Shown: positions 17,852-33,628 of the stretch, one piece after another | Layout: the number at the start of each line of letters is the position of its first letter | Numbering within the stretch: position 1 is the first letter of the stretch | Notes under the pieces: generated by a model | The model's database searches: none | What the model saw: the letters and a program-made list of their open reading frames with translations, nothing else | Told to the model about the DNA's origin: nothing | Assembly (NCBI GenBank): GCA_002087915.1 | Contig: LWDP01000006.1 | Location: 1-62,454, forward strand | Length of the DNA: 62,454 bases | From: Enterospora canceri | Taxonomy: Eukaryota > Microsporidia > Enterocytozoonidae | Direction: 5' to 3' | Program-made: the position numbers and the translations under genes

Positions 17852-18020
17852 TTTGGGGTTATACTATTTTATGCAACAATTAAGCTTAAGTGGTATATAT
17901 AGATAGTAGTGTGAAATGTAGTAGTAATAATAGTATAGTAATAGTAGTAGTGTGAAATAGGTGCACCTACAATCATATTGAACAATCCAATCCTTTACTA
18001 ATCCACTACTATCTCCCTTA

Positions 18021-18083
18021 TAATCCCTTATAATCCCCTATAATCCCCTATAATCCCCTATAATCTCCCTTATAATCCCTTAC
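18021..18083. repeat. Short tandem repeat, unit taatcccc(t)ta
   Basis: About six imperfect copies of a 10-base unit (taatcccta / taatccccta), one of them 12 bases long, lie just beyond the 3' end of the Argonaute gene. The last copies touch its stop codon. The sequence is transcribed, if at all, as the 3' untranslated region of that gene. Confidence 0.85.
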
Positions 18084-20482
18084 AAGTAAAATAGGTTACT
18101 GCTAATCTTCCTGATCACATCCCTCATCTCCACTACGTCACCCTCGTTTCTCTCAAAGTAGGCCTTTCCCCTGACTGCTGCCAAATTGGCGTAGTAAATT
18201 GGTGGCACCACCGATACGCTCTTGGTTGCCCTGGCATAGAGGTGGCACAAGGAGAAGATGCTGGTGTGAAGTGCCTCCTGGGTGAATCCACTCTCGTTGA
18301 GAAGCACCTTGTAGCGAGTTGGCCTTGCTGTGCCCTGGAGAGCATGGGCACTGACGAGGAAGAAGTCGATTGGAGCCTCGTTTCCCATTCCGCCTACGAG
18401 TGTCCCTGGTGCCAGATTCCCCATGTCCTGTTCACCAGCAAACCTGACTGAATGCCTCTTCTGCGCCACGATGAAGTTCAATTCCGGATGGTAGTTTTTT
18501 TCCATTGCTGCAAGTGCCTCCTTCATTGCACTGATTTCCTGGGTGAAGACGGCCTCAAAGGCGGAGTCTCCGAGGCCGTCCCTGAAGAAGACAATTCGCT
18601 CTGGCTTCTTCTTCGTGGCCGTGAAATGCGCCCTGAGCAATGACGTCACTGTCTCCTTCAACGATGCCACTATCTCAGTCCTCCTCTTCTGCGTCCCAAT
18701 GACTGTCTTGTAGTTGACGAAGTCGTAGTCGATGCTGCCTACTGCTGCTACCACCGTAGGGGAGTCTACGTCTGTGACACCAGGATGCTGGACATTGAGA
18801 CCAATGAGCATCGTGGCCTTATCGGAGAAGATGCCCTCAGAAAGGGAGTGGTTCTCACCACCCATTTTTGCGTTTATTTTCAGGAGGATGTTTCCTATGA
18901 AATTTGGATTGGCCATCTTCGACGATGCATTTGCCCCCAGGACGCACTGGGTGACGTGGCCCGTGTACGTCTCGGCCACTCTCTTGATCTCCTCGTAGCG
19001 CATGGCCGACTTGTCAGGGAGGACGACCATGTTGAACTCCTCCTTCTCGGAAGCAAAGAACTCGTCCACGACTGAAATCTGCTCCTGAACAGGGTGCTCC
19101 CTTGGAAACCTGATTCCGTACCTGGTTGCCACCTCGATGAACTTGTCCAACACGTCATTTCGTAGGCGATCTCGCCCCCTGAAATAGAACACCTTCCACT
19201 TTCCAATTTCAACTGGTCTCAGGGCAGCCACGTCCCTCAGGTTCCACGATCCACCTGAAACCTGAACAGTCGTGTTCGAATACTTCACCACTGGTGGAGG
19301 CAGAATCATCCCCTTGCAGTTTGTGAACTTGTTGTCGAAGGCGACTCCGAAGGAGGAGAGCAGCTCGTTGCTGAAGACTCGCAGCTCCTCTGCCTTCTGC
19401 TGGATGATTCTGAATCGGTCATCTGGCTTCTTGGCCGCTATTTTGATCATCGAGGCAGTCATTGCCTCGTTCAGCTTTGGCGAGTATCGCTGCATCGGTG
19501 CCACCTCAAGCACCTCAATTGGGAAGTAGAGCTGCTGGTCTCTGACTCTGATTTCCACCAGTGGAAGATGGGGGTGCTTCAGCTCAAAATACTGTTTCTT
19601 GAAGTAGTCGGCCACAGACATCTCCTCCTCAGTCGAATTGTCCCTGTTGCTGAATTTCACCATTTTTCGGGTGGCAGAGTCCTCGACCAGGCCGCTGCAC
19701 GTGAACGACTTGTTTCTCTCGCCACGGTGCACCGTCCTCACCCTCAGCTTCCTCACGTATCGCTCCAGGTGGTGGTGGAACTCCTGCGTGGGCGAGCCAA
19801 GTGACCCGTAGAGGCGCGAGGACGCAACCAGATCGCTGACCAGGTCGATCAGCCGCTGTGGGCGGTAGAAGACGCCAAACGACTGGTCCAGGTTCAGAAA
19901 GAGGCCGTCTGTTCCGAGGCTGAAGGAGGCTGTGACTCCGCTCAGCACGTCCAGGCCGACTCCAATTGGAACTGGCCTCGTTGATGGAACAATCATCTTC
20001 CTCCTGTCCACGAAGAAGTGCTCCCTCTGGTGGTGTCTGATCAGCGCATTGAAGCAGTTCAGCAGCTCAAGTGGATTTCCGTTCTCGGATTTCACCGCGT
20101 TTCGGAACTCGATTTTGCACTTCTGGACGCCCTCCCTCAGCGGGAACTCCAGCTCGACGTCGTCGATCTGCTCCTTCGTCACGAGCGTGTCGTTTCCGTC
20201 AAAGGCGTAGGCCGTCTCGGCCAGGGCGCCGTTGTGCGCCAGGATCTTCTTCAGTCTCTCGAAGATGAAGGCGCTTCTCTTCACCTCAGGCGTAATTCGA
20301 ACAGTGTACTGGAAGAAGGTGATAGGGGGGCCAGTGTACCTGAACATGTTCGAGTAGACCTGGACCTCAGTTGGCTCGCTCACAGTCACAACCCTCGCTC
20401 GGGGCGCACTGCTTGCGCCCCTTCGGTCGTCAAAGCGTCTTCCTCGATCTCCACGGTCTCTGTCGCGTGCATCAAATGACAT
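18080..20482 (-). CDS. AGO: Argonaute protein with altered slicer residues
   Basis: Argonaute binds small guide RNAs and silences complementary RNA. The 800-residue protein has an Arg/Asp/Gly-rich amino end, a PAZ domain at about 225-345 (VADYFKKQY, HPHLPLVEI), a MID domain at about 480-560 and PIWI from about 555. The guide 5'-phosphate pocket is intact: Y496, K500, Q512, K535, K539. The catalytic tetrad is not. The first Asp is Asn (GLNVQHP, N563, codon at 18794-18796), Glu603 and Asp635 (FFRDG) are kept, and the last His is Asn (YYANL, N766, codon at 18185-18187). Guide binding is therefore likely but target cutting doubtful. The start at 20482 follows gtgacccca. No Dicer gene is in the window. 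Codon use is visibly more GC-rich than in flanking genes. Confidence 0.95.
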   Translation of the reverse strand: MSFDARDRDRGDRGRRFDDRRGASSAPRARVVTVSEPTEVQVYSNMFRYTGPPITFFQYTVRITPEVKRSAFIFERLKKILAHNGALAETAYAFDGNDTLVTKEQIDDVELEFPLREGVQKCKIEFRNAVKSENGNPLELLNCFNALIRHHQREHFFVDRRKMIVPSTRPVPIGVGLDVLSGVTASFSLGTDGLFLNLDQSFGVFYRPQRLIDLVSDLVASSRLYGSLGSPTQEFHHHLERYVRKLRVRTVHRGERNKSFTCSGLVEDSATRKMVKFSNRDNSTEEEMSVADYFKKQYFELKHPHLPLVEIRVRDQQLYFPIEVLEVAPMQRYSPKLNEAMTASMIKIAAKKPDDRFRIIQQKAEELRVFSNELLSSFGVAFDNKFTNCKGMILPPPVVKYSNTTVQVSGGSWNLRDVAALRPVEIGKWKVFYFRGRDRLRNDVLDKFIEVATRYGIRFPREHPVQEQISVVDEFFASEKEEFNMVVLPDKSAMRYEEIKRVAETYTGHVTQCVLGANASSKMANPNFIGNILLKINAKMGGENHSLSEGIFSDKATMLIGLNVQHPGVTDVDSPTVVAAVGSIDYDFVNYKTVIGTQKRRTEIVASLKETVTSLLRAHFTATKKKPERIVFFRDGLGDSAFEAVFTQEISAMKEALAAMEKNYHPELNFIVAQKRHSVRFAGEQDMGNLAPGTLVGGMGNEAPIDFFLVSAHALQGTARPTRYKVLLNESGFTQEALHTSIFSLCHLYARATKSVSVVPPIYYANLAAVRGKAYFERNEGDVVEMRDVIRKISSNLFYL

Positions 20483-21806: not shown

Positions 21807-23708
21807 ATGCGCATTGATTTGCCGAACACATTCCACAGGCCAGTTCTCTTCAGGAAAGCAGGAACCACGGAATACGTGGGATCATTTGATGTGAAGCAGG
21901 GTAGGCTTGAGATGCTTGGAAAGGAGTACGCCCAGCCATTTGAGATCATGAAGTACGCAGCAGAGGGAGTTGATGGTACTGCGGCGTACACTGAGACAGT
22001 TGGAATAAAGCTGGCTGATTCTGTTGAGTTTCTGACCAATTCTGATCATAATCCAGTGAAATCAGGTTATCAGCAACAATACGAAATTATTCAAATGAAT
22101 CAGGGGAGCATTTCAACCAAAACACTCGTCCAAATCAGGTCAGTGACTGATGGATCATGTTTGACCGCTAGTTTGGAGGAGAATCTGCTCTTTTACGATT
22201 GTAATTTGGGTAATGGTGATCAGATATTTGAGATTGAGGAAGTTGGTCTGGCTGATTTCAGTGATGGATTCTTCATCAAGAACTTCGTAGACGACAAGTT
22301 CATCACGTTCAACAGGAACGGGGTTGGAGCAGCATTGGGGACTGAGAAGGAGTTGGCGCACCTGTTTTATACGGCAGAAGGAGGAGACGTGGGTGATACG
22401 AGGAATCAGGTTGTGATTGATGCAAATGGAACTGATGAAATCTACGATAGAAACAGGGATTTGATTCGTAAGCAGAGTGGACACGTGTATGATGTTCAAA
22501 CAGGAGAGATGCCATTGACAGGATACGAGAAGGAGTATGCGCTGTTCAGGGAGTCAGACGGGAATCTGATGACAGAGAGGGCACATCTTGGCAGTACCAA
22601 ATCAACAAATTTATTTAGAATTGATCAGGTGAATGAAAATGTGTACAAAATACGCACAGGGAAAGGAGCGTGTTTGGAGTACGATAATGTGAGCAGAGGA
22701 TACAAATTCAAGAAGTGTGAGACCACAAACATGCAGTTGTTTGAGCTACTGAATATTGAACAGAAGGAGGTGTTTGATAGAATACGGCCAGAGGTGTTAG
22801 TTAGTGAGGAAGGTATTTTTGTTGAATTAGCTAGTAAAACAGGAGGAGCAGCCTACCTTGGAAACAAGGACAACAGACTTGGAGTTGTAGGAAACAAGAA
22901 GAAGGCATTGCACCTGAATGATCGTCTTGAGTTTGTTGATACGCTGGTGTATCAGGATGGTGGAATATTGATCACACCAAGTGATCATATTGATGGGATA
23001 ATGGAAGTGAGGATGGTAAAGAATCAAAATGATCATAAAAGCACCAATTTGATTGTAGGAGGGAAGTGTTTGACCTATAAGAGCGTAAGTCAGGAATTCA
23101 GTTTGGAGCCATGCAAGAACAAGGAAGGACAGAATTACAGGGTGGTTGAAGAGAGATACAAGGACAATTTGTATGGGAATCAAACAAGAAGGGTTGATAC
23201 GGTGAATTCTGACATATTTGTGGTTGTAAGATACATAAAACACGGTGAAATGTTCAAAACAGAACCAGTTGACTTGGGAAATGGTGGAGAAAGTGGGGTA
23301 GAGAGCAAACCTGAAACACAGAGCAGCAAAACAAGGACCAATCCATCACTACATGACGTAATGACCATAACTAACAGTGATAAAATGAATATGAGACAGG
23401 CCTACAGAAACACGCCTTTTGACAAACTGACTGAGACAGAATTGAGACAATTCGAAAATAAGCAGGTTCATAGAATGAAGATGTCGGAAATACAGAGGTT
23501 GACGCACAACAAGCTGTCTGAGACAGAAATAGAAGACGTAAAAGAGAGATCCAAATCAATGGTGCACATCAATACACACTACAACAATAACAGGTTTATC
23601 AAGAGCAACTGGTGTCTCCTACAAGACAACTTCAAAATGAACTACATGAAGGAAAACAAGGTGAATGAAACCAAAGCAGCCAGGTGGATAGCACCAAACA
23701 ACCAATAG
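21807..23708 (+). CDS. Ricin-B-lectin-like protein, three trefoil units, no signal peptide
   Basis: This is the first and longest member of the local beta-trefoil family. The 633-residue protein has three copies of the family signature Cys-x(8-16)-Cys-x(4-8)-Q-x-F. They start near residue 117 (GSCLTASL...QIFEI), residue 288 (GACLEYDN...QLFEL) and residue 418 (GKCLTYKS...GQNYRV). Such domains usually bind carbohydrate; no toxin A-chain is present. From about residue 495 the tail is polar and helical and ends MNYMKENKVNETKAARW, related to the LxYMKSGT tails of two shorter paralogues. Unlike its neighbours it has no visible signal peptide, and a stop codon lies seven codons upstream of the ATG. 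Confidence 0.85.
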   Translation: MRIDLPNTFHRPVLFRKAGTTEYVGSFDVKQGRLEMLGKEYAQPFEIMKYAAEGVDGTAAYTETVGIKLADSVEFLTNSDHNPVKSGYQQQYEIIQMNQGSISTKTLVQIRSVTDGSCLTASLEENLLFYDCNLGNGDQIFEIEEVGLADFSDGFFIKNFVDDKFITFNRNGVGAALGTEKELAHLFYTAEGGDVGDTRNQVVIDANGTDEIYDRNRDLIRKQSGHVYDVQTGEMPLTGYEKEYALFRESDGNLMTERAHLGSTKSTNLFRIDQVNENVYKIRTGKGACLEYDNVSRGYKFKKCETTNMQLFELLNIEQKEVFDRIRPEVLVSEEGIFVELASKTGGAAYLGNKDNRLGVVGNKKKALHLNDRLEFVDTLVYQDGGILITPSDHIDGIMEVRMVKNQNDHKSTNLIVGGKCLTYKSVSQEFSLEPCKNKEGQNYRVVEERYKDNLYGNQTRRVDTVNSDIFVVVRYIKHGEMFKTEPVDLGNGGESGVESKPETQSSKTRTNPSLHDVMTITNSDKMNMRQAYRNTPFDKLTETELRQFENKQVHRMKMSEIQRLTHNKLSETEIEDVKERSKSMVHINTHYNNNRFIKSNWCLLQDNFKMNYMKENKVNETKAARWIAPNNQ

Positions 23709-23786
23709 TAAGTAAACCGTATTTATTGACACAAATACATCATTGTTACAGGTTTGTTTAAATTGTTTCCATACAACAGTTGTAAC

Positions 23787-24317
23787 ATGATTTGCGTGGC
23801 TTTGTCGTTGTTGTCAACTGCAACTTGCTCAATCCAGCTTGGTGATGAATTCTCTCTCTCAGTGGGTGAGAAGTATCTTACGGCCCAAGATGGATCAATT
23901 GTTGCTGGACAGAAGGAAGACAGTCCGTTTTGGGTTGGAAGACCAAATGACCTGGGTGGACTCAATTTCGAAAGTGACGTCATGAATCAGGCACTGAACT
24001 ACAGTCCAGGAAGTCATAAACTGGTTTTATGGCGAAATGGATCAAATGTAACCACAAACAAGTGGGATGTGATAAAACGAGGTGAGAAGGTACAGCTGGT
24101 CTCGTTGAAGGGAACGTGTGCAGCACTGGATGGTACGGCATTTAAGGGCGTTAAGTGCGATCCAGATGACAGAAATCAACTGTTTACAGTTCACAAGAAG
24201 GGAGAGGAAAAGAAGGTGACACCAACAGGAAGTGGATTGACGTACGGAAAGTGCTCAAATCACAAGAAAAGCAACGAGACGTTTCCACAGGCTGAAACAT
24301 GGGGTAGTACAGAATAA
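23787..24317 (+). CDS. Secreted ricin-B-lectin-like protein, single trefoil
   Basis: The product has 176 residues. A short signal peptide (MICVALSLLSTATCS) leads directly into the trefoil (GDEFSLSVGEKYLTA). The last trefoil strand has the family signature GTCAALDGTAFKGVKCDPDD followed by NQLFTVHKKGE. The tail (NHKKSNETFPQAETW) resembles the YMKSGT...W tails of other members. The ATG at 23787 is the first in frame. It is closest to the next gene, with which it shares AGDEFxLSVG-like, ALNYSP and QLFTVHKKGE segments, so the two are a recent tandem duplication. Carbohydrate binding is inferred from the fold only. Confidence 0.85.
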   Translation: MICVALSLLSTATCSIQLGDEFSLSVGEKYLTAQDGSIVAGQKEDSPFWVGRPNDLGGLNFESDVMNQALNYSPGSHKLVLWRNGSNVTTNKWDVIKRGEKVQLVSLKGTCAALDGTAFKGVKCDPDDRNQLFTVHKKGEEKKVTPTGSGLTYGKCSNHKKSNETFPQAETWGSTE

Positions 24318-24387
24318 AACAACCTGTAATATATCATTGTTTAGCATATCATTGTTTTATGATGACTCCTGTGGTATAAATTGGAGA

Positions 24388-24395
24388 CTGTTTTG
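24388..24395 (+). promoter_or_regulatory. CTGTTTT box before a lectin-like gene
   Basis: ctgttttg lies 13 bases ahead of the ATG at 24401. The same core ctgtttt occurs before the lectin-like genes at 25160, 29701 and 38831, and cagtttt before 26605. A shared promoter element is inferred; the AT-rich background makes chance hits possible. Confidence 0.3.
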
Positions 24396-24400
24396 TTTCT

Positions 24401-25078
24401 ATGGTGCTACTTAATTTGTTGAGTGGTTTGATTCACTGTGAAATAAACGCAGGTGACGAATTCACCCTATCAGTTGGTGATCAATATTTCTACTATGACT
24501 CAAACAATGATGGTGTGAGTGGAACGAAGAGTAATACGCCAACATGGGTTGCCAAGAACCACAGTAAAGGGGGATTGACGTTTGAAAGCACTGAATTGAA
24601 GAAGGCACTGAATTATAGTCCAAGGTATAGGGGTCTTGTACTGTACTCCAGGGGAGTTAGAAAGCCAAACAACAACTGGACTGTGATAGAACAGAAGAGT
24701 GGGAAGGTTCAGCTCAAAGGAAACTATGGGAAATGCGGACTATTGACTAATGGGAAATTTAAGGCAGCAAAATGTAATGAAAATAATAAGAATCAGCTCT
24801 TTACAGTTCACAAGAAGGGTGAAGAGGTTTCAAGTGAAGATATTACGACACCATTGAAGGATGAGCAGCCTAAAAAGCAGTCAGGAGATAACTTTATAGC
24901 CAATAACGCGGCACAGAGCACTAAAACACCTAAAAAGAAACCTCAGGTTGAGAAGAGTAACAAAATGCCGCTTACCAAAGTGGAAACAAACCAAAACAAA
25001 CCACCAAAAAAGCTGAAAATGAATGGAAATGCTGAAATCAATGATAGCATGGTTAAAAATGGAAGTGTACTTGATTAA
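24401..25078 (+). CDS. Secreted ricin-B-lectin-like protein with Lys/Pro/Asn-rich tail
   Basis: The product has 225 residues: a signal peptide (VLLNLLSGLIHCEI), one trefoil (GDEFTLSVGDQYFYYD ... GKCGLLTNGKFKAAKCNENN ... NQLFTVHKKGEE), and from about residue 140 a polar tail rich in Lys, Pro, Asn and Thr. The tail ends KLKMNGNAEINDSMVKNGS, which fits the L-x-M-[DN]-G ... NG motif that closes the two large paralogues at 27219-29114 and 29701-31563. It is a tandem copy of the preceding gene with a different tail. Confidence 0.85.
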   Translation: MVLLNLLSGLIHCEINAGDEFTLSVGDQYFYYDSNNDGVSGTKSNTPTWVAKNHSKGGLTFESTELKKALNYSPRYRGLVLYSRGVRKPNNNWTVIEQKSGKVQLKGNYGKCGLLTNGKFKAAKCNENNKNQLFTVHKKGEEVSSEDITTPLKDEQPKKQSGDNFIANNAAQSTKTPKKKPQVEKSNKMPLTKVETNQNKPPKKLKMNGNAEINDSMVKNGSVLD

Positions 25079-25129
25079 ACTAGGACAATCACAATATTAC
25101 CAGTATAAACTGAAACAGTGTATCAAATG

Positions 25130-25138
25130 CTGTTTTAA
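25130..25138 (+). promoter_or_regulatory. CTGTTTTAA box before a lectin-like gene
   Basis: ctgttttaa lies 30 bases before the ATG at 25160. The surrounding stretch 25118-25139 (gtgtatcaaatg, then the box) closely matches 26564-26585 in front of the next paralogue, with only three differences. The promoter was therefore probably copied with the gene. Confidence 0.4.
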
Positions 25139-25159
25139 TATGGCAATTCAATCTCATCA

Positions 25160-26383
25160 ATGCTGGTGTTTCTGAATGCTGTGAATTGTATTATGCAGCC
25201 AGGTGATACATTCCGCCTGAAGAGTGGCAAAATGCATATTGGATCAAAAAGAAACAAGATGATTCTGAAGCCAAGGGCAGAGGATACGCCATACACTGCA
25301 ACCACCAATTCAAAGGGGAATGTCTCGTTTTCTACTTCTGATCCGTCTGAATACGGTGCGATCAAACAGATATTCATGGACGTATTCAGGCCAGGGCGAG
25401 CTGATGCTAAAAATAACTGGGAAGTTACTGAAAAAGGGGGATTAGCAACAGTTAAAAACAGTAGAGGAAAGTGTCTGACACGAGTTGGAGAGCGTTTGGT
25501 GAAAAAGGCCTGTAAGAACAAGAAGGAACAGCAGTTTGGAGTAGAATACGTGAAAAAAGCAGATCAAAATAGTGGAAGTGATCAATCAAAGAATGAAGGA
25601 GATAAAACACAAGAAGGAAATAGTCAGTCACAAGGTGCAAATACATCACATGATGAGCCAAAAGAGACTGAACTTCCAGGTGGAAGCACAGCTGTAGGAG
25701 GATCACAAACATCTCATCAGACATCTCATCAGACATCTCATCAGACTCAATCAGCTCATCAGACTCAAACAGGTCATCAGACTCATCAGGATCAGTCACC
25801 TCAGTCATCTTATCAAACACAAACATTTCATAGGATCCATCCATCTCATCAGGCACAATCATTTCATCACACCCATCCATCTCATCAAACTCATTCATCT
25901 CATCAAACTCATTCATCACATCCATCACATCCATCACATCCATCACATCCATCACATCCATCACATCCATCACATCCATCACATCCATCACATCCATCAC
26001 ATCCATCACATCCATCACAAACAAGCCAAACAAGCCAGAAGCCACAGTTGGACCACTCATTTGAATTCAAAAGACCAAGAATCATAAAAAGAACCATTTA
26101 CAGAGACAAATCCCTAGGAGAAGATTCACGAAAACTGCCTTATTCAGCAACGAAACCAGGTGAGACACCTGCATCCTCATCACCGGTGCAAGCAACGCAA
26201 GAAGCAATCAAAAACAGGAAACCAATTGAACCAGCAACTTGTGGTCTGGGAAAGGATCATGATCATGGATCAAACCCAGAAGTGCACCTGAATTACATGA
26301 AAAGTGGTACAGCAATGAGACCAGCAAACAGGATGCCAAACACAGAGAGGTGGCACGAAACAACACTTGTAAATGATTGGTAG
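25160..26383 (+). CDS. Secreted ricin-B-lectin-like protein with His-Gln-Thr and His-Pro-Ser repeats
   Basis: The product has 407 residues: a short signal peptide (MLVFLNAVNCIM), one trefoil (GDTFRLKSGKMHIG ... GKCLTRVGERLVKKACKNKKEQQF, to about residue 130) and a long low-complexity region. This region has Ser/Gln/Glu, then SHQT-type units (about residues 182-255), then about eleven HPS tripeptides, then SQT units. The end carries LNYMKSGTAMRPANRMPNTERW, the same tail motif as the gene at 26605. His-rich repeats can bind metals or interact with charged surfaces, but this is inference. A wall or coat role is plausible for such a secreted repeat protein. Confidence 0.85.
   Translation: MLVFLNAVNCIMQPGDTFRLKSGKMHIGSKRNKMILKPRAEDTPYTATTNSKGNVSFSTSDPSEYGAIKQIFMDVFRPGRADAKNNWEVTEKGGLATVKNSRGKCLTRVGERLVKKACKNKKEQQFGVEYVKKADQNSGSDQSKNEGDKTQEGNSQSQGANTSHDEPKETELPGGSTAVGGSQTSHQTSHQTSHQTQSAHQTQTGHQTHQDQSPQSSYQTQTFHRIHPSHQAQSFHHTHPSHQTHSSHQTHSSHPSHPSHPSHPSHPSHPSHPSHPSHPSHPSHPSQTSQTSQKPQLDHSFEFKRPRIIKRTIYRDKSLGEDSRKLPYSATKPGETPASSSPVQATQEAIKNRKPIEPATCGLGKDHDHGSNPEVHLNYMKSGTAMRPANRMPNTERWHETTLVNDW
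25916..26019 (+). repeat. 9-base tandem repeat (catccatca frame), about 11 copies
   Basis: Near-identical copies of a nine-base unit encode the His-Pro-Ser tripeptide array inside the lectin-like gene. Copies are almost uniform, which points to recent expansion and likely length variation between strains. Confidence 0.95.
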
Positions 26384-26604
26384 AAAGAAGTGATTACCAT
26401 AATAAGCCATTAGTCCCTGACTACGACAATAATACAATATATTGGTATGTAACTGTTTATAGGGTTTTCATTTACTTTTATACCACTGTTTATCAAATTG
26501 TAAGTAAACAATATCGGGTGTGAGAGTGGTATTACATTACTCAATGTCATATTCTATGAAACGGTGTATCAGAAGCAGTTTTAATTTCGATTTAATCCCT
26601 CATA
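26384..26604. other. Intergenic region with a 20-base match to the transposon remnant
   Basis: Bases 26411-26430 are identical to 5367-5386 in the transposon debris near 5.3 kb (tagtccctgactacgacaat). The match covers tagtc...gacta arms. It may be a solo terminal repeat or the footprint of a small element. The rest is AT-rich promoter sequence of the next gene. Confidence 0.6.
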
Positions 26605-27159
26605 ATGATCCACTTACTAAGGCTGATATGGGCCGTAATTGAGCCAGGTGACAAGCTGTACCTATCGGTGAACAGCCAGTACATCACGTTTGACGGAAAC
26701 AACAGCGGTGTTGGGGGAGCAAAGGACGACTCGCTCGAGTACACGGCAGTGAGACACGACTCAGGCGGAATCAGCTTCTTGAGCGAATCTGAAAATAGGG
26801 CACTTAATTTCAGTGCCAATAAAAACAGTTTCAACATGTACTACACTGGAACAGAGAAGGCGAATAACAACTGGGTGACGGATGAGAAGGGCGGATACAC
26901 GCGACTCATCAACCAGTACGGAAAGTGCGACACTCTCGTGGGACGGAGTTTCGACTTCAAAATGTGCGATAACGGGGCCAACCAGAAGTTCAGGGTGGAA
27001 TTCACGAATAAGCAGCACCCAAATTACCAGAAAGCAGGGGCAGAATCAGGCTACGTTTCAAAGAATTCGTTACAGTACATGAAGAGTGGGACTGGGCCAC
27101 ACCGGTACAGGATGAATCCGCAGATTATCACGTGGCTGGGGAATACGGTGAGCTACTGA
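26605..27159 (+). CDS. Secreted ricin-B-lectin-like protein with YMKSGT tail
   Basis: The product has 184 residues. A short signal peptide (MIHLLRLIWAVI) runs into the trefoil (GDKLYLSVNSQYITF ... GKCDTLVGRSFDFKMCDNGANQKF). The tail reads LQYMKSGTGPHRYRMNPQIITW, sharing LxYMKSGT, an R-x-M/N-P stretch and a final Trp with the preceding gene. Its body is closest to the 23787 and 24401 genes (GVGGAKDDS versus GVSGTKSNT). The start follows aatccctcata. Confidence 0.85.
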   Translation: MIHLLRLIWAVIEPGDKLYLSVNSQYITFDGNNSGVGGAKDDSLEYTAVRHDSGGISFLSESENRALNFSANKNSFNMYYTGTEKANNNWVTDEKGGYTRLINQYGKCDTLVGRSFDFKMCDNGANQKFRVEFTNKQHPNYQKAGAESGYVSKNSLQYMKSGTGPHRYRMNPQIITWLGNTVSY

Positions 27160-27218
27160 GGCAGAATTAAAACACGAGTGAAACAATCAGTGATTTAATC
27201 AGAAATTGTTTTGTAAAC

Positions 27219-29114
27219 ATGTTTTCGATAGTGCGTTTTATGGCTGTACTTGGGGCAGAGGAGGAGATTCACCTCTTCAGCCTGTGGGGAGACAAGGGGC
27301 TGAAGGCCACTGGGAAGGAGGGAGCGGCTACTGGAATCGTAGACCACAGCGAGGCCACTGAATTCGCCTACACAAAAAGCAACAAGTTCGTCCTGACTGG
27401 TGCAAGAAAGTACGTCTTGGATTGGAATAGGGGGAATGATAGCATAATCTCGTGGACTAACAACAGCCACGGGGACTCAAACCAGAAATTCAGGTTTGAA
27501 AAGGCCCTATCAGATCCAAGGTACCTCAAGGTGACGGATGGAAGGAGGTGTATGACATTCAACTACAGCAAAAACACCGTTGAATTCAACCAATGCAACA
27601 AGTCGTTGGAACAGGTCTTCCTAAAGAAGATCAGGCAGGCAACAAACACGTTTTTGGTGTACACGAAGAAGGGGCCTCATGGAATACGAGCCAAGTTGGA
27701 GGTGAATACACCAATTGAACTGGTGGATCCAGGGAAGACAGAGAGCATCTACTGCGATGGATCTACGACAAAAGTTGGACTGGCGTACGCACAGCAGTCG
27801 GCATTTGAGTTCAACAGCAGCACAGGTGAATTTGTGCTGAAATTGGAGTCAGCTGGGCAAGTACGACAGGATGTGACATGTGAAATGGGGGTTGGTAACG
27901 AATTCAGGCTAAAACACGATGGAAAGTGTTTAACAGTAGACGAGAGCAAAATGAGACTGGTTCTGGAGCCATGTAGTGACAAAATTGAACAGATTTTCAT
28001 GAAGAGCCTGAAAGAGAAGGAAAAGGATGTTGGGGTAGTGGAACCAAGGGCATTTAAGTTGACAAACAGGGACAATACAAGGGCATTGAAGGGTATTGCA
28101 GAGTCAGGGGAGGAAATACGCGTAAAGAACAGGGAAGAGGGAACACTCTGGAACGAGGATAAGGAGGCACCATCAGTGGACATGAAGGGCGGAAACTACT
28201 CCATGGACTACTTGGAGAAGGCGCAAACAATGGGAATGTGGAAGAAGGTGCCAGGAGCAGAAGACCAGAGGGTGACACTTGAACCAGATGGCAATGGGCT
28301 GTTTTATCTCAAAAACAAGGGGCTTTGTGGGACATTTGAAGGAGACGTCATAAAAATGAGGAAGTGCGATGGATCGGCTGAACAGAAATTCAACAAATTG
28401 ACAGCTGAGGACGAGATGGCATTGGCAAAGGGAAGCAAGGCAAATCCAGAGACAGGGGGACACCACTACGACATTCACATTACGGGGCCAGGTGAGGAGC
28501 ACGTGGATGGGAAGAATCCAACAATTCACGTAGATGGGTCACATACAGTGAAGATAAAACCATCAAAAGACGATTCAAAGGAGCCTGAAATAGTAATAGA
28601 GCCAATGGAAGGAAAGGAAGGGGTTGAAGAGCAGCCAATAGCAGTGGCAGGCGTGAGGGAGCTAGCAGTAGGTGAAAATGGATTATATGGAGATTTGGGA
28701 AGAAGTGGAAGACCAGGGTCAGCCATGAGACCACGAAGAGGGGTGAAAGGAATGAGAGAGGGCGATCCAAGTGGAAGAGGCTCCTTGAACAAAGCAGCTG
28801 AAGCACTTGGAGCAGCGAATCCATTGGGAAAGGGGACTGAGAAGGTAAGCGATCCATTGGATAAGGCAACTGGAGCAGAGAAAGTGGCTGAAATAACGAG
28901 CAAAGCAGGTGCAACAAATGACAAGACACCTTCAACAGGAAGTGGTATGAGAAAGATAAATAAGAATGCAAATGGAGCAGGAAATAAGGAAACAGCTGGA
29001 GACAACAAGAATGACGGGGCAAAAGGACGTCTAAGAATGGATGGGCGAACAGGAGTGTCATGCACTGATGACACGTGTTTGAATGGACACATTTCGCCAG
29101 CAAGTGATTTGTAA
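27219..29114 (+). CDS. Secreted ricin-B-lectin-like protein, three trefoil units
   Basis: The product has 631 residues, a clear paralogue of the 620-residue gene at 29701. A short leader (FSIVRFMAVLGA) is followed by three trefoil units, each ending in the Cys...Cys...Q-x-F signature. These are RCMTFNYS...NKSLEQVF near residue 110, GKCLTVDE...DKIEQIF near 246 and GLCGTFEG...GSAEQKF near 371. A linker (HYDIHITGPGEEH) and a Gly/Ala/Lys-rich tail with repeated L-x-KA units follow. The end is RMDGRTGVSCTDDTCLNG, whose two cysteines and M-D-G...NG frame recur in the paralogue. Carbohydrate binding is presumed from the fold. Confidence 0.88.
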   Translation: MFSIVRFMAVLGAEEEIHLFSLWGDKGLKATGKEGAATGIVDHSEATEFAYTKSNKFVLTGARKYVLDWNRGNDSIISWTNNSHGDSNQKFRFEKALSDPRYLKVTDGRRCMTFNYSKNTVEFNQCNKSLEQVFLKKIRQATNTFLVYTKKGPHGIRAKLEVNTPIELVDPGKTESIYCDGSTTKVGLAYAQQSAFEFNSSTGEFVLKLESAGQVRQDVTCEMGVGNEFRLKHDGKCLTVDESKMRLVLEPCSDKIEQIFMKSLKEKEKDVGVVEPRAFKLTNRDNTRALKGIAESGEEIRVKNREEGTLWNEDKEAPSVDMKGGNYSMDYLEKAQTMGMWKKVPGAEDQRVTLEPDGNGLFYLKNKGLCGTFEGDVIKMRKCDGSAEQKFNKLTAEDEMALAKGSKANPETGGHHYDIHITGPGEEHVDGKNPTIHVDGSHTVKIKPSKDDSKEPEIVIEPMEGKEGVEEQPIAVAGVRELAVGENGLYGDLGRSGRPGSAMRPRRGVKGMREGDPSGRGSLNKAAEALGAANPLGKGTEKVSDPLDKATGAEKVAEITSKAGATNDKTPSTGSGMRKINKNANGAGNKETAGDNKNDGAKGRLRMDGRTGVSCTDDTCLNGHISPASDL

Positions 29115-29700
29115 GGGAAATAAAAAATAAAATAATTGTTGTCAGGTACAAGAATACGACTGTGATTCAGACTGTTTAATATGGAAAGGAGTTGAATATG
29201 TACTACAATTACAACTATTATAGGTTTATATTGCATATTACAAGTAAGCTTAAAATACATAAAAGAAAATGTAATCAAAGAAACACCCTTCTAAGAGCAA
29301 TTCATTAGTAAACTGCTACATACTGGTCATTAGACTACAACAAGTTTATTATATTACTCAACTGACACAAAAACAGGTACCGTAATATACGTAATACTCT
29401 AAATAATATGCATAAATAGCATAAAAATAGGAAATAACAAGAAATCACAGCAGAAACAAACCAAAATAACTCTTTTAAGCGTATTTAACAAGCATAAATA
29501 CGCATATTACACATATAAACAATTCATTAACAATAAAACAAATCAAAACAAGATAAACAGCAACCTCAATACTCTAAGAATGCGATATGACTGTACTGTA
29601 TTCAGACCAAACATGTGTCACAATCCCATATTACAGCAGCAAGACAGAGTTAAAACGCTCTTGAAACGGACATTAATTTAATCTCAGACCTGTTTTACAC
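29115..29700. other. Long intergenic region, no gene seen
   Basis: These 586 AT-rich bases are unusually long for this gene-dense part. No start signal, tRNA or conserved frame is visible. Several A-rich and aaacaa-type runs occur at 29440-29570. It may hold the promoter of the large lectin-like gene that follows, or the remains of a lost family member. Confidence 0.5.
29690..29698 (+). promoter_or_regulatory. CTGTTTTAC box at a lectin-like gene start
   Basis: ctgttttac lies 11 bases before the ATG at 29701, the closest spacing among the copies of this box in the array. It could be promoter, initiator or part of a very short leader. Confidence 0.3.
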
Positions 29701-31563
29701 ATGAATGCAATGCTATTCCTCCTGGATGTGATGGCCAAGACTGGGAATGTCCACCTCTACACGGTGTGGGGAGACAAGGGACTGAAGGCTACTGCCAGAA
29801 ATGGGGCTGATCTGAGACTTGTGGAGCCCAAGGATGCAACGCTCTTCTTTCTGGAAGGCAACAACAAGTTCTTCATGGTCGACAACAAGAAATACGTCTT
29901 AGACTGGAACCAGGGAAACAACCACATCATCACGTGGACCAACAAGAGCTGGGGAGACGCCAACCAGAAGTTTGCGAGCGAGAAGGCGCTGGCTGATCCG
30001 GCGTACATCAAGTTGACGAACGGCTCGAGATGCTTCACGGCTGATCCAAAAAGCGGCCTGATCAACTACGACAAATGCAATGGATCATTGAACCAGGTTT
30101 TCCATAAGGAAATCAGGGAGGCAAAAGAGACGTTCAAATTCTACACGAAAAAGGGCCCATTTGGAATAAAAATGAAGTTGGAGGTGAAGGCGAGAATTGA
30201 GCTGATTTCGCCTGACACCACTGATGAGATCTACTACGACGAGGAGACAAACAGGGCTGGCCTGGCCACTGCGACACAATCTGCCTTTGAATACGACAGC
30301 AAATCAAAGGCATTCGTGATCAAGTTGGAGACCAAATCAGCGAACAAACAGACCATTTCAATGAAGAAGTTGAATGAGAACGAGTTCAAATTGATGCACG
30401 ATGGGAAGTGCCTGGCAGCTGACAGCACTGCCAGAAGCCTGAAACTGGAAGACTGTGCTGATAACAGAACGGAACAGGTCTTCTCGAAGGTGAAGCCACC
30501 GAAGGAGATGCCTGTGAGCGTGGATCCACCAGTTGATTTCAAACTCACGAACAAGGACAACACGAAGGCACTGAAAGGGGGCACCACGAACAATAAGCCA
30601 ATTGACGTGGTGGAACTGAGTGATGGATCGATGTGGTCGGCTGATGAGAATGTGCCATCAGTTGATTTACAGGGAAAGAAGCATTCGATGGACTACATGT
30701 CTGATAAAAAGGTGATGGGAATGTGGAGCAGGGTGCCTGGTGCCCGAGACCAGCGAGTGACACTCGAGAAGGACGATACGGGCTTCTTCTTGCTCAAAAT
30801 AATGGGACTGTGTGGCGCATTTGATGGAAAAGTGATCAAAATGAAGACGTGTGATGAATCAGATGAGCTGAAATTCAACAAGTTGACGGCAGATGACGAA
30901 GAGAAGCTGAAATCAGAGAAGGCGAATCCTGAAACAGTGCCAGACCACTACGAAATCCAAATCACTGGGCCATCTGGTGGACCAAAGCAGCCTACGATTC
31001 GAGTGGATGCGTCCCACCGTGTCAGAATCAACCCAGCTGTGAATGAATCGGACAAGCCTGAAATTGTGGTGGAACCAGCAGAAGCCAGGTCAAACGAGAA
31101 CTGTTGTGGCCCACAGCCAATTGGCCTAGTTCGACTGGATGGATCTGCCCTTCCTCTCTACGAAAATGGCTACTTTGGAAATCCACTAAAAAGAAGAAAC
31201 AGCCTTTGGGAAAGGGGACTGTACGGGAAAGTGCGTCGTAGGAGGAGACAGCCCCTGACTGGGGCCAACAGAAGGGGCGGTGCCGACCGATTGGAAATCG
31301 AAGACGAAGAAGACGAAAACATCGTTCCAGCACCAATTGGAAACAGAAACCTGCCTGATTTCATCAAATCAAAGAATCCGCCTGGATCAAACCAGTTTGA
31401 CCGTCAGGCAGCAGTGGCAACGAGCCAGGTGCTTGACGACCTGATTGATGAGGAAGTGAGGGATCCACACGTCCATGGGAAGCTGATCATGGACGGAAGC
31501 ACAGACATGCAGTGCCAGGGCAAACACTGCCTAAATGGGGTGGCCATAACACAGCGAGATTGA
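29701..31563 (+). CDS. Secreted ricin-B-lectin-like protein, three trefoil units, paralogue of the previous one
   Basis: The product has 620 residues. Signal-like start (NAMLFLLDVMA), then the same order of blocks as the 27219 gene: WGDKGLKAT, KYVLDWNQGNNHIITWTN, three cysteine signatures (RCFTADPK...LNQVF, GKCLAADS...TEQVF, GLCGAFDG...DELKF), and HYEIQITGP before the tail. The tail is Arg-rich (KVRRRRRQ) and then acidic (EDEEDEN), unlike the Gly/Ala tail of its partner, yet it ends in the same motif (IMDGSTDMQCQGKHCLNG). Strong conservation of the lectin part and of the last 20 residues, with free change between them, suggests that both ends are functionally important. Confidence 0.88.
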   Translation: MNAMLFLLDVMAKTGNVHLYTVWGDKGLKATARNGADLRLVEPKDATLFFLEGNNKFFMVDNKKYVLDWNQGNNHIITWTNKSWGDANQKFASEKALADPAYIKLTNGSRCFTADPKSGLINYDKCNGSLNQVFHKEIREAKETFKFYTKKGPFGIKMKLEVKARIELISPDTTDEIYYDEETNRAGLATATQSAFEYDSKSKAFVIKLETKSANKQTISMKKLNENEFKLMHDGKCLAADSTARSLKLEDCADNRTEQVFSKVKPPKEMPVSVDPPVDFKLTNKDNTKALKGGTTNNKPIDVVELSDGSMWSADENVPSVDLQGKKHSMDYMSDKKVMGMWSRVPGARDQRVTLEKDDTGFFLLKIMGLCGAFDGKVIKMKTCDESDELKFNKLTADDEEKLKSEKANPETVPDHYEIQITGPSGGPKQPTIRVDASHRVRINPAVNESDKPEIVVEPAEARSNENCCGPQPIGLVRLDGSALPLYENGYFGNPLKRRNSLWERGLYGKVRRRRRQPLTGANRRGGADRLEIEDEEDENIVPAPIGNRNLPDFIKSKNPPGSNQFDRQAAVATSQVLDDLIDEEVRDPHVHGKLIMDGSTDMQCQGKHCLNGVAITQRD

Positions 31564-31650
31564 ATGGTCTAATAGGCGTGATCATATTAATTCTGTTTCA
31601 TTTTCTGACGGTTTCATGTTCCATCACAAAAGTGATCACTATTTTATAGT

Positions 31651-32478
31651 ATGCTTTTTGTAAGGTGGATAGCAGCAAACTACTTTGAGGTAGTCAGGGA
31701 GAATGGCCCATCAGCCAATAAAGCAGCAGAATACCAGAAAGAGGAGTGGGAGTGCTACCTGGCAACAAGGGGCCTTGATAGGGCACTGGTTGCAGACAAC
31801 AGGATTCAGAGCAGAATTGGGCTGGGAGCCCTGAAGAAGGGGACGAAGCTGATTCAGAACCAGAACAGCGGGATGCTGAAGCTCGATGCTGATTTGTCAC
31901 TGGTGATTGAGATGGACGGAGACTGGCTCGTGATCAGTCGAATGGAGCCAAACAAGAGGAGTCAGCGGTGTGAGATCAGGCGAGACAGGGACGACCTGGT
32001 TTCAATCAGGTACGGAAACAGGTGCATGACGTACAGTGGTGCAACAAGCAGGGTGTCACTGGAGCACTGCATTGTTGGGGCGGATGAGCAGCTCTTTCGT
32101 GAGATTTATTCGGTGAAGATGTTCAGGCTGTTTTCGTACGACATGAAGAAGAGCGTAGGGGAGTTAGTGGTTGGGAAGAAGATGGAGATTGTGGATCCAA
32201 TGAGAAGGAGGAGTGGGACATTCCACTACAACAGGAGCGAGGGGCAGCTGGGGTCTGGGGAGCACCAGAGACGCGTGATCGAGGCCAATGCGGATGAGGT
32301 GGTGGCTGCCCTGAAGAACGAGAGCAGGGAGCAGCAGTTTGTGGTCGACTACTTTGGGGTTGATCAGATGGTGATCAGGTACAAGGGAGACTGTGCCACC
32401 TGGGACTACGAGAAAGGGGTGATTGAAATGAGGCCATGTGACAACTCGGTTGATCAGCTGTTCAGGAAGAAGCATTAG
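31651..32478 (+). CDS. Secreted ricin-B-lectin-like protein, two trefoil units
   Basis: The product has 275 residues with a weak leader (MLFVRWIAA). Two family signatures are present: NRCMTYSGATSRVSLEHC...DEQLF near residue 127 and GDCATWDYEKGVIEMRPCDNS...DQLF at the carboxy end. It stops directly after the second unit, without the low-complexity tail of other members. The next gene starts about four bases after the stop and has the same two-unit architecture in its carboxy half. The pair is a tandem duplication, or the two could once have been one longer gene. Confidence 0.82.
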   Translation: MLFVRWIAANYFEVVRENGPSANKAAEYQKEEWECYLATRGLDRALVADNRIQSRIGLGALKKGTKLIQNQNSGMLKLDADLSLVIEMDGDWLVISRMEPNKRSQRCEIRRDRDDLVSIRYGNRCMTYSGATSRVSLEHCIVGADEQLFREIYSVKMFRLFSYDMKKSVGELVVGKKMEIVDPMRRRSGTFHYNRSEGQLGSGEHQRRVIEANADEVVAALKNESREQQFVVDYFGVDQMVIRYKGDCATWDYEKGVIEMRPCDNSVDQLFRKKH

Positions 32479-32482
32479 GGAA

Positions 32483-33628
32483 ATGGGTGAAACAGTTTCA
32501 GGTGGAATAGAATTGTGGGATGGATTGCTCAGTATGTGGACGCCACTCGTAGAATGCAGCATATTCAGTCTGGAACACACTGATCCAAATGAAGAGGCAA
32601 GGAAGCCACCAGTGAGTTTGGATGCAATGGATCATTTGATGAAAGTGAAGGAGCAATATGGGGTGGATGTAGGAATGGGAAGAGTAGGAGAAAAGGGTGA
32701 TAAGAGGGATAAGGGTGATAAACCAGAAAGAGAGAATACGCCTAGATTATCACAGGAACAGAAGGGTGATAGAAATATGACAGAAAAAGGTGACAGTAAG
32801 AGATATACGCCACAGAATCCAGTAACTACCCCTACTACCCCAACAACTACTACTACCACCACTCCATTGATCAATAGTAGATCACCAGGAGTAGAATACT
32901 TCTATATCACATCACCAGATCAGAAATACGGGATATCAGTCCATGAAGATGGAACTGCCATTCTAAGGAAACCAGAGGAATCAACCAATTTCAAGTACGA
33001 GAATATGCAACTGCATTTGGGAAGTAGAGATCACATGATACTGGAATACAGTGAGAGAGAAAAGAGACTGGTTATAGGAAATAAAGGAAATAAAAATCAA
33101 AATGGGACAATATTGATCAAATTGATCAATGATGGTGTGAATGAGATAAGGGTGAATGGCAGCTGTGTGACAAGGGTGGATGAGACCATTCAGCTGAGAC
33201 CGTGTAAATTGACTGAACTGTCCCAGCAGTGGATGAAGACGTACAGTTTAATCAGAATGAGACTGCTGAATTCAGGTGGAACCAGAAGTGTGGCATTTGG
33301 TGAATTGAATAAGCCAATTGGAATTGTTCAGGTGGAAGATGGGATGGATTTGTACTACGATCCACAATCCATGCAACTGGGTCTCTTTGACAGCCAGGGA
33401 GTGGTGGCAAAGAGCAACAACTTCAGCAGGGACATTCTGACTGGTAGCATCGACAGAAAGGGCGGTGGCCACTTTGTGATGGATGAGATTGAGAGAGGCA
33501 GATTCAGAATCAAGCAGGATGAGAAGTGTGTGGAGTGGGACTACGATGGTGGCAAATTGGTACTGGAAGTCTGTGATAGGAAGGAATCACAGGTGTTTGT
33601 GAAACAGGAAGCAGTAAAAGAGCAATAG
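32483..33628 (+). CDS. Ricin-B-lectin-like protein with Thr-rich linker, two trefoil units
   Basis: The product has up to 381 residues. After an amino-terminal part without a clear signal peptide come a Lys/Asp/Gly-rich region (GEKGDKRDKGDK) and a Thr/Pro linker (about residues 115-135, where TTTPTT-type runs would be candidates for O-mannosylation). Two trefoil units follow, with signatures GSCVTRVDETIQLRPC...SQQW and EKCVEWDYDGGKLVLEVCDRK...SQVF. The first ends in Trp, the classical QxW form. The ATG at 32483 is the first in frame within the spacer. An ATG at 32534 (MWTPLVECSIF) would give a more hydrophobic amino end and is a fair alternative. Confidence 0.78.
   Translation: MGETVSGGIELWDGLLSMWTPLVECSIFSLEHTDPNEEARKPPVSLDAMDHLMKVKEQYGVDVGMGRVGEKGDKRDKGDKPERENTPRLSQEQKGDRNMTEKGDSKRYTPQNPVTTPTTPTTTTTTTPLINSRSPGVEYFYITSPDQKYGISVHEDGTAILRKPEESTNFKYENMQLHLGSRDHMILEYSEREKRLVIGNKGNKNQNGTILIKLINDGVNEIRVNGSCVTRVDETIQLRPCKLTELSQQWMKTYSLIRMRLLNSGGTRSVAFGELNKPIGIVQVEDGMDLYYDPQSMQLGLFDSQGVVAKSNNFSRDILTGSIDRKGGGHFVMDEIERGRFRIKQDEKCVEWDYDGGKLVLEVCDRKESQVFVKQEAVKEQ

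What the first reader, a model, noticed from the sequence alone, without database searches (positions are those of the whole stretch)
18080..20482. Argonaute with a doubly altered slicer centre (N-E-D-N) but an intact guide pocket
The first catalytic Asp (GADVTHP in slicing Argonautes) reads GLNVQHP, and the last His (YYAHL) reads YYANL. Both altered codons are AAT. The middle Glu and Asp and the 5'-phosphate-binding Tyr, Lys, Gln, Lys, Lys residues are kept. The protein is full length, so this is not simple decay. It suggests a guide-binding, non-cutting Argonaute in a genome expected to shed unused genes, perhaps silencing by recruitment; the CCR4-NOT subunit Caf40 is also encoded in this window.
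Basis: partly seen in the sequence, partly recalled or inferred. Interest (0 to 1): 0.8.

Follow-up and report, generated by a model that had tools for sequence, protein, structure and literature searches.

The report
Argonaute that lost its cutting site
A crab parasite and its relatives keep a complete, conserved Argonaute, the protein that holds small guide RNAs in gene silencing, although residues it would need to cut RNA have been replaced, so it probably silences by binding rather than cutting.

Summary
Window 18080-20482 (minus strand) encodes an 800-residue Argonaute whose slicer tetrad reads N-E-D-N; both Asn codons are AAT. The genome is Enterospora canceri, family Enterocytozoonidae, and no second Argonaute was found.
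The change is not private to this species. The first Asp is Asn in 4 of 4 members of one clade (tetrads NEDN, NEDD, NEDE, NDEE; support 100/100) and Asp in 31 of 31 other rows, so it was most simply lost once, on that clade's stem. The fourth residue changed separately; one member kept Asp.
The losses are selective. Of 44 columns identical in 22 other microsporidian and 8 distant Argonautes, E. canceri changes 2: the first catalytic Asp and a Ser-to-Thr. All seven guide 5'-end residues are kept in all four, and the predicted fold matches human AGO2. Dicer keeps both RNase III centres. RdRP is cut by a contig end, its catalytic part not found.
Best reading: a guide-binding, non-slicing effector downstream of Dicer, WAGO-like in operation. 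The silencing step is inferred. Caf40's presence says nothing.

The parts
18080..20482 (-). Argonaute coding sequence, 800 aa plus stop, ATG start
18161..19030 (-). PIWI domain (PF02171, E 2.8e-74 in the genome search)
19448..19786 (-). PAZ domain (PF02170, residues 233-345)
18794..18796 (-). codon AAT, N563: first catalytic position, Asp in 31 of 31 rows outside the clade
18674..18676 (-). codon GAG, E603: glutamate finger, kept
18578..18580 (-). codon GAC, D635: third catalytic position, kept
18185..18187 (-). codon AAT, N766: fourth catalytic position, His (19) or Asp (12) in the 31 rows outside the clade
18866..18997 (-). MID part of the guide 5'-phosphate pocket: Y496, K500, Q512, K535, K539, all kept
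18170..18232 (-). PIWI arginines R751 and R771 (human R792, R812; numbers recalled), Arg in 35 of 35 rows

Best explanation
This is the Argonaute of Enterospora canceri, a microsporidian of the family Enterocytozoonidae. On the stem of the clade that holds E. canceri, Ecytonucleospora hepatopenaei and two unnamed relatives, the first catalytic aspartate became asparagine. With that, the two-metal RNase H-like centre could most likely no longer cut RNA, and the other catalytic positions were free to drift. The rest of the protein stayed under selection as a guide-loaded RNA-binding platform. Mechanism I think most likely: Dicer (catalytic acids intact), perhaps helped by the RdRP, makes small RNAs; Argonaute binds their 5' phosphate and 3' end; the passenger strand leaves without being sliced; the guide-loaded protein binds complementary RNA and silences by blocking it or by bringing other proteins to it. 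In operation this resembles the slicer-less WAGO Argonautes of C. elegans. Shown here: residue states, a single change on the tree, selectivity of the losses, predicted fold, Dicer catalytic acids. Inferred: absence of slicing, guide loading in life, and the whole silencing step.
Against: No activity or small-RNA data. H712 (kept in 22 of 22 other microsporidian rows) is also lost in all four, and E. hepatopenaei has changed F277 (PAZ) and H566, so guide or target handling may be changed too. Not every clade-wide change is catalytic: 8 of 161 columns changed in all four rows, only one of them catalytic; S576T is shared by three of four. For E. canceri alone the enrichment is not significant (1 of 3 against 1 of 41, p 0.13). 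The catalytic half of RdRP was not found. No dN/dS was possible because I found no held collection with nucleotide sequences of the relatives.
Confidence: 0.72

Rival explanations
1. A gene on its way out: slicing was lost because RNAi is no longer used, and the remaining protein is decaying slowly before deletion, as happened to the whole pathway in other microsporidia.
For: E. hepatopenaei has changed all four tetrad positions and H566. Many microsporidia lack Dicer, or Dicer and Argonaute (PMC8206274, PMC7313128, PMC12663654, passages).
Against: 42 of 44 near-universal columns are kept in E. canceri. About 283 replacements on its end branch without a stop, against a rough neutral expectation of 12.7 stops; this is conditioned on the gene having been seen because it is intact. 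Dicer RNase III centres are intact. GC by codon position 0.54, 0.39, 0.71. The clade is deep: the three relatives are 55-62% identical to this protein.
Confidence: 0.13
2. Residual or altered catalysis: Asn plus Glu and Asp still hold a metal ion, giving weak or conditional slicing, perhaps with special guides as in human AGO3.
For: E603 and D635 are kept in 3 of 4 clade members, and P0003 has N-E-D-D. Human AGO3 slices well only with certain short guides (PMC10772731, passage).
Against: The first Asp binds the metal (PMC10772731, passage). The glutamate finger is kept even in inactive human AGO1 and AGO4 (PMC9262622, passage), so keeping it is no sign of activity. E. hepatopenaei changed the other positions too.
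Confidence: 0.1
3. The DNA codons are not what is translated (RNA editing), or they are a sequencing error, and the protein made is a normal slicer.
For: Both altered codons are AAT; no reads could be examined.
Against: The same first-position Asn occurs in three relatives, and the Glu residues at positions three or four of P0004 and P0005 do not fit one kind of editing.
Confidence: 0.03

Closest known systems
Ecytonucleospora hepatopenaei AGO2 (P0005) and unnamed relatives P0003, P0004
   Same: Same clade, same Asn at the first catalytic position, full length, same guide pocket
   Different: Other tetrad positions differ: NDEE, NEDD, NEDE against NEDN
Other microsporidian Argonautes (Enteropsectra breve, Vittaforma corneae, Nosema and Vairimorpha species, and unnamed rows)
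   Same: Same architecture and guide pocket; 37-48% identity
   Different: Tetrad DEDH or DEDD in 22 of 22 rows P0006-P0027; P0028 reads DDDH
WAGO Argonautes of C. elegans
   Same: No catalytic tetrad, yet effectors of silencing (PMC4245922, passages)
   Different: Paralogues beside Argonautes that keep the tetrad, in one animal; here one Argonaute without it is all that was found. WAGO sequences were not in my trees
Human AGO1 and AGO4
   Same: Catalytically inactive, glutamate finger kept (PMC9262622, passages); same overall fold
   Different: They act beside AGO2 and bind TNRC6/GW182 proteins (PMC9262622, passages); no GW/WG partner was found here (a weak test)

Membership tests
Eukaryotic Argonaute (Ago) | N-L1-PAZ-L2-MID-PIWI architecture | tested here: met
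   Pfam: ArgoN, ArgoL1, PAZ, Piwi above cut-off; ArgoL2 and ArgoMid below cut-off but in order
Eukaryotic Argonaute (Ago) | Bilobed Argonaute fold | tested here: met
Eukaryotic Argonaute (Ago) | Guide 5'-phosphate pocket (Y, K, Q, K, K) | tested here: met
   5 of 5 kept, also in the three relatives
Slicing Argonaute | DEDH or DEDD catalytic tetrad | tested here: not met
   NEDN
Slicing Argonaute | Guide-directed RNA cleavage | not testable with these tools
   needs a biochemical assay
WAGO-like silencing (works like) | Effector Argonaute without the tetrad | tested here: met
   tetrad NEDN; feature taken from PMC4245922. That it is an effector is inferred
WAGO-like silencing (works like) | RdRP that makes the guides | tested here: inconclusive
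   RdRP positions 1-209 of 582 at a contig end; 28 of 28 DxDGD pattern sites read, none looks like an RdRP
WAGO clade (membership) | Groups with nematode WAGOs in a tree | not tested
   no WAGO rows in the trees; it groups with microsporidian Argonautes
GW182-type recruitment | Tryptophan pockets on PIWI and a GW/WG-rich partner | tested here: inconclusive
   Some pocket positions match human AGO2 (residue list recalled), in slicing and non-slicing microsporidian rows alike; WG-repeat pattern gave 13 sites against 7 for the reversed pattern, 9 of the 13 one DNA repeat

The most novel reading that the evidence does not exclude
In one family of highly reduced parasites, RNA interference lost slicing once, in the family's ancestor, and has run since then on a single non-slicing Argonaute fed by an intact Dicer: a natural experiment showing that in a minimal eukaryotic RNAi pathway the conserved part is guide binding and target binding, not cutting.
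Probability: 0.5. Interest if true: 0.75.

Novelty: new variant of a known kind. Interest (0 to 1): 0.62.

Why it matters
Slicer-less Argonautes are known mostly as extra paralogues beside slicing ones (WAGOs, human AGO1 and AGO4). A clade that shares a lost slicer, with no slicing Argonaute found beside it in E. canceri, while the guide pocket, the fold and Dicer stayed intact, would separate what RNAi needs from what it can do without. It would also bear on how gene-knockdown experiments in these parasites of crabs and shrimp are read, since double-stranded RNA could not act through Argonaute slicing in the parasite itself (inference). One published survey of 20 microsporidia lists 11 species that keep Dicer and Argonaute, without E. 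canceri or E. hepatopenaei among them although both are named in its species list (PMC8206274, passages); the present calls show an Argonaute in both and a Dicer in E. canceri.

Tried and rejected
Rejected: sequencing error at the first position (three relatives agree). Rejected: simple pseudogene. Rejected: Caf40 in the window as evidence for recruitment. Rejected on present evidence: a second, slicing Argonaute (one hit each with the Piwi family and with the E. hepatopenaei protein; the assembly is 2.24 Mb in 75 contigs and may be incomplete).

Led nowhere: the rest of RdRP. Of 28 DxDGD sites (20 for the reversed pattern), all 28 were read in frame; those at C16 and C33 look by eye like RNA polymerase largest subunits, none like an RdRP. 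A WG-repeat partner. A paper on an Asp-to-Asn mutant of Thermus Argonaute (0 papers) and on slicer-independent fungal Argonaute (0 papers). No paper on slicer loss in microsporidian Argonaute was seen in the listings (40 of 94 listed; 20 of 22; 12 of 12; 20 of 22; 25 of 26; 3 of 3); the library holds open-licence papers only, and the two most relevant papers (Huang 2018; Wiredu Boakye 2017) were seen only as references, not read.

Rows dropped: P0002 (the window's own protein, 527 aa) was left out of alignment A1; P0028 (divergent, tetrad DDDH) was left out of the 22-row reference set. Its Asp at the glutamate-finger position, and the DDDD tetrad of Chlamydomonas AGO1 that its authors think likely active (PMC6668577, passage), mean that E603D of E. 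hepatopenaei need not itself be a loss.

Not used: the second structure job, two of three Foldseek jobs, and the viral contigs and genome-contig scans (these hold viruses, bacteria and archaea).

Full report
What is there. The minus strand of window 18080-20482 encodes an Argonaute of 800 residues without an internal stop. Pfam finds ArgoN, ArgoL1, PAZ and Piwi above cut-off, with ArgoL2 and ArgoMid weaker but in the right order. The window is contig C57 of a 2.24 Mb, 75-contig genome. That genome is Enterospora canceri: its Dicer is the protein named DCL1 of that species, and its RdRP frame is 100% identical over 92% of its length to the one named RDR1, on contigs of the same lengths, 63,332 and 13,162 bases. 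NCBI places it in Enterocytozoonidae. The window's own protein is listed as a 527-residue piece (P0002); the full frame adds 273 residues at the start.

A clade-wide loss. The nearest rows are P0003 (62%), P0004 (58%) and E. hepatopenaei AGO2, P0005 (55%). Their tetrads are NEDD, NEDE and NDEE. Of the 31 other rows, 31 have Asp at position one; position four is His in 19 and Asp in 12. With catalytic columns left out, the four form one clade with SH-aLRT 100 among 35 rows and bootstrap/SH-aLRT 100/100 among 27 rows. Position one needs a single change on the tree, position four needs seven. P0003 and P0004 carry no names, so their membership of the family is taken from the tree, as is the word microsporidian for the unnamed rows.

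Selective, not general, decay. In the 22 rows P0006-P0027, 161 columns are invariant; E. canceri changes 16, P0003 18, P0004 18, E. hepatopenaei 23. Of these, 44 are also invariant in 8 distant rows (alga, plant, fungi): E. canceri changes D563N and S576T only; E. hepatopenaei changes F277I, N537V, D563N, H566R, E603D, D635E. Catalytic columns are hit more than others: 3 of 3 against 3 of 41 in E. hepatopenaei (p 0.0015), 3 of 3 against 5 of 41 for any of the four rows (p 0.004); for E. canceri alone 1 of 3 against 1 of 41 is not significant (p 0.13). H566 stands three residues after the first position and corresponds to the His that contacts target position t10 in AtAGO10 (PMC10772731, passages). 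Against a purely catalytic story, eight of the 161 columns changed in all four rows, and only one is catalytic; another, H712, also lies in PIWI. The end branch of E. canceri (0.37 changes per column) stands for about 283 replacements; neutral drift would give about 12.7 stops where none is seen. That figure is rough and conditioned on an intact gene having been noticed. GC at codon positions is 0.54, 0.39, 0.71.

The rest of the pathway. Dicer (1290 aa, C30) has two RNase III domains, and the eight catalytic acids (recalled) are among the columns invariant in 10 of 10 aligned Dicers. Pfam saw no helicase, PAZ or dsRNA-binding domain in it. RdRP is present up to profile position 209 of 582, where the contig ends; its similarity to plant RDR2 is clear, but the catalytic motif lies beyond and was not found: all 28 DxDGD sites of the genome were read and none looks like an RdRP. 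No second Argonaute was found. There is an HP1-like protein with chromo and chromo-shadow domains, two SET proteins and four reverse-transcriptase loci, so both a possible nuclear route and possible targets exist; nothing links them to Argonaute yet.

How it probably works. The first Asp binds a catalytic metal in human AGO2 and AtAGO10 (PMC10772731, passages), so Asn there should abolish slicing; this is inference. Keeping the Glu finger is no sign of activity, because human AGO1 and AGO4 keep it and are inactive (PMC9262622, passages). The closest working model is the WAGO Argonautes of C. elegans, which lack the tetrad and are nonetheless effectors of silencing (PMC4245922, passages). I therefore propose a guide-loaded, non-slicing effector fed by Dicer, and perhaps by RdRP. 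Which proteins it brings to the target is open. The tryptophan-pocket positions (list recalled) are partly human-like in the microsporidian rows generally, slicing or not, and the WG-repeat scan was negative but weak.

What is known. In the passages seen, papers on microsporidian RNAi discuss presence or absence of Dicer and Argonaute, not the catalytic residues of Argonaute (PMC7313128, PMC8206274, PMC12663654). PMC8206274 lists 11 of 20 species with both genes, without E. canceri or E. hepatopenaei. I cannot say that the loss is unpublished: Huang 2018 and Wiredu Boakye 2017 were not read.

Verdict. Observation confirmed; interpretation partly supported; a new variant of a known kind (non-slicing Argonaute), notable because it is clade-wide and because no slicing Argonaute was found beside it in E. 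canceri. Whether the other three members hold a second Argonaute or a Dicer was not tested.

Noticed in passing
window 18080-20482: The protein listed for the window in the protein database is a 527-residue piece (P0002) starting at residue 274 of the full 800-residue frame, so that gene model is probably too short.
   Followed up: partly
L006 2-3073 (G000:C48): RdRP frame has about 790 residues before its RdRP domain, without a Pfam match; by eye a stretch with LHRLGRQ resembles a helicase motif, which would recall the Dictyostelium helicase-RdRP fusions (recalled).
   Followed up: partly
L005 3264-7136 (G000:C30): Dicer of 1290 residues with two RNase III domains but no Pfam-detectable helicase, PAZ or dsRNA-binding domain. 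Its C-terminal part is far more diverged than Argonaute: the best relatives are 29-32% identical, against 55-62% for Argonaute.
   Followed up: partly
L038 1456-2871 (G000:C2): SET protein with a cysteine-rich stretch before SET that looks by eye like the CXC region of E(z)-type methyltransferases; the genome also has an HP1-like chromo plus chromo-shadow protein (L030 1252-1761).
   Followed up: partly
L032, L033, L034, L035: Reverse-transcriptase domains at four loci (five matches) in open frames of 1041 to 1546 residues, possible targets of silencing; not checked for host origin.
   Followed up: no
window 21807-33628: Four frames with ricin B lectin matches, two above the Pfam cut-off (27219-29114, 29701-31563) and two below it (21807-23708, 32438-33628).
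   Followed up: no
window 17989-18082: Tandem repeat of about 10 bp (TCCCTTATAA) just downstream of the Argonaute coding frame, reaching its stop codon.
   Followed up: no
L041, L042, L045 and G000:C60, C69, C72: A repeat TGGGGAAAAAAAGGGAC... recurs on several contigs, near their starts at C18 and C46; perhaps subtelomeric.
   Followed up: no
P0028 in alignment A1: A divergent microsporidian-side Argonaute has Asp at the glutamate-finger position (DDDH) and a long arginine- and asparagine-rich insert.
   Followed up: no
P0001, P0020 N-termini: Some microsporidian Argonautes start with an Arg/Gly-rich stretch (P0020 strongly), although PMC6668577 states that this GR-rich N-terminal domain is generally absent in microsporidia (passage; alignment).
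   Followed up: no
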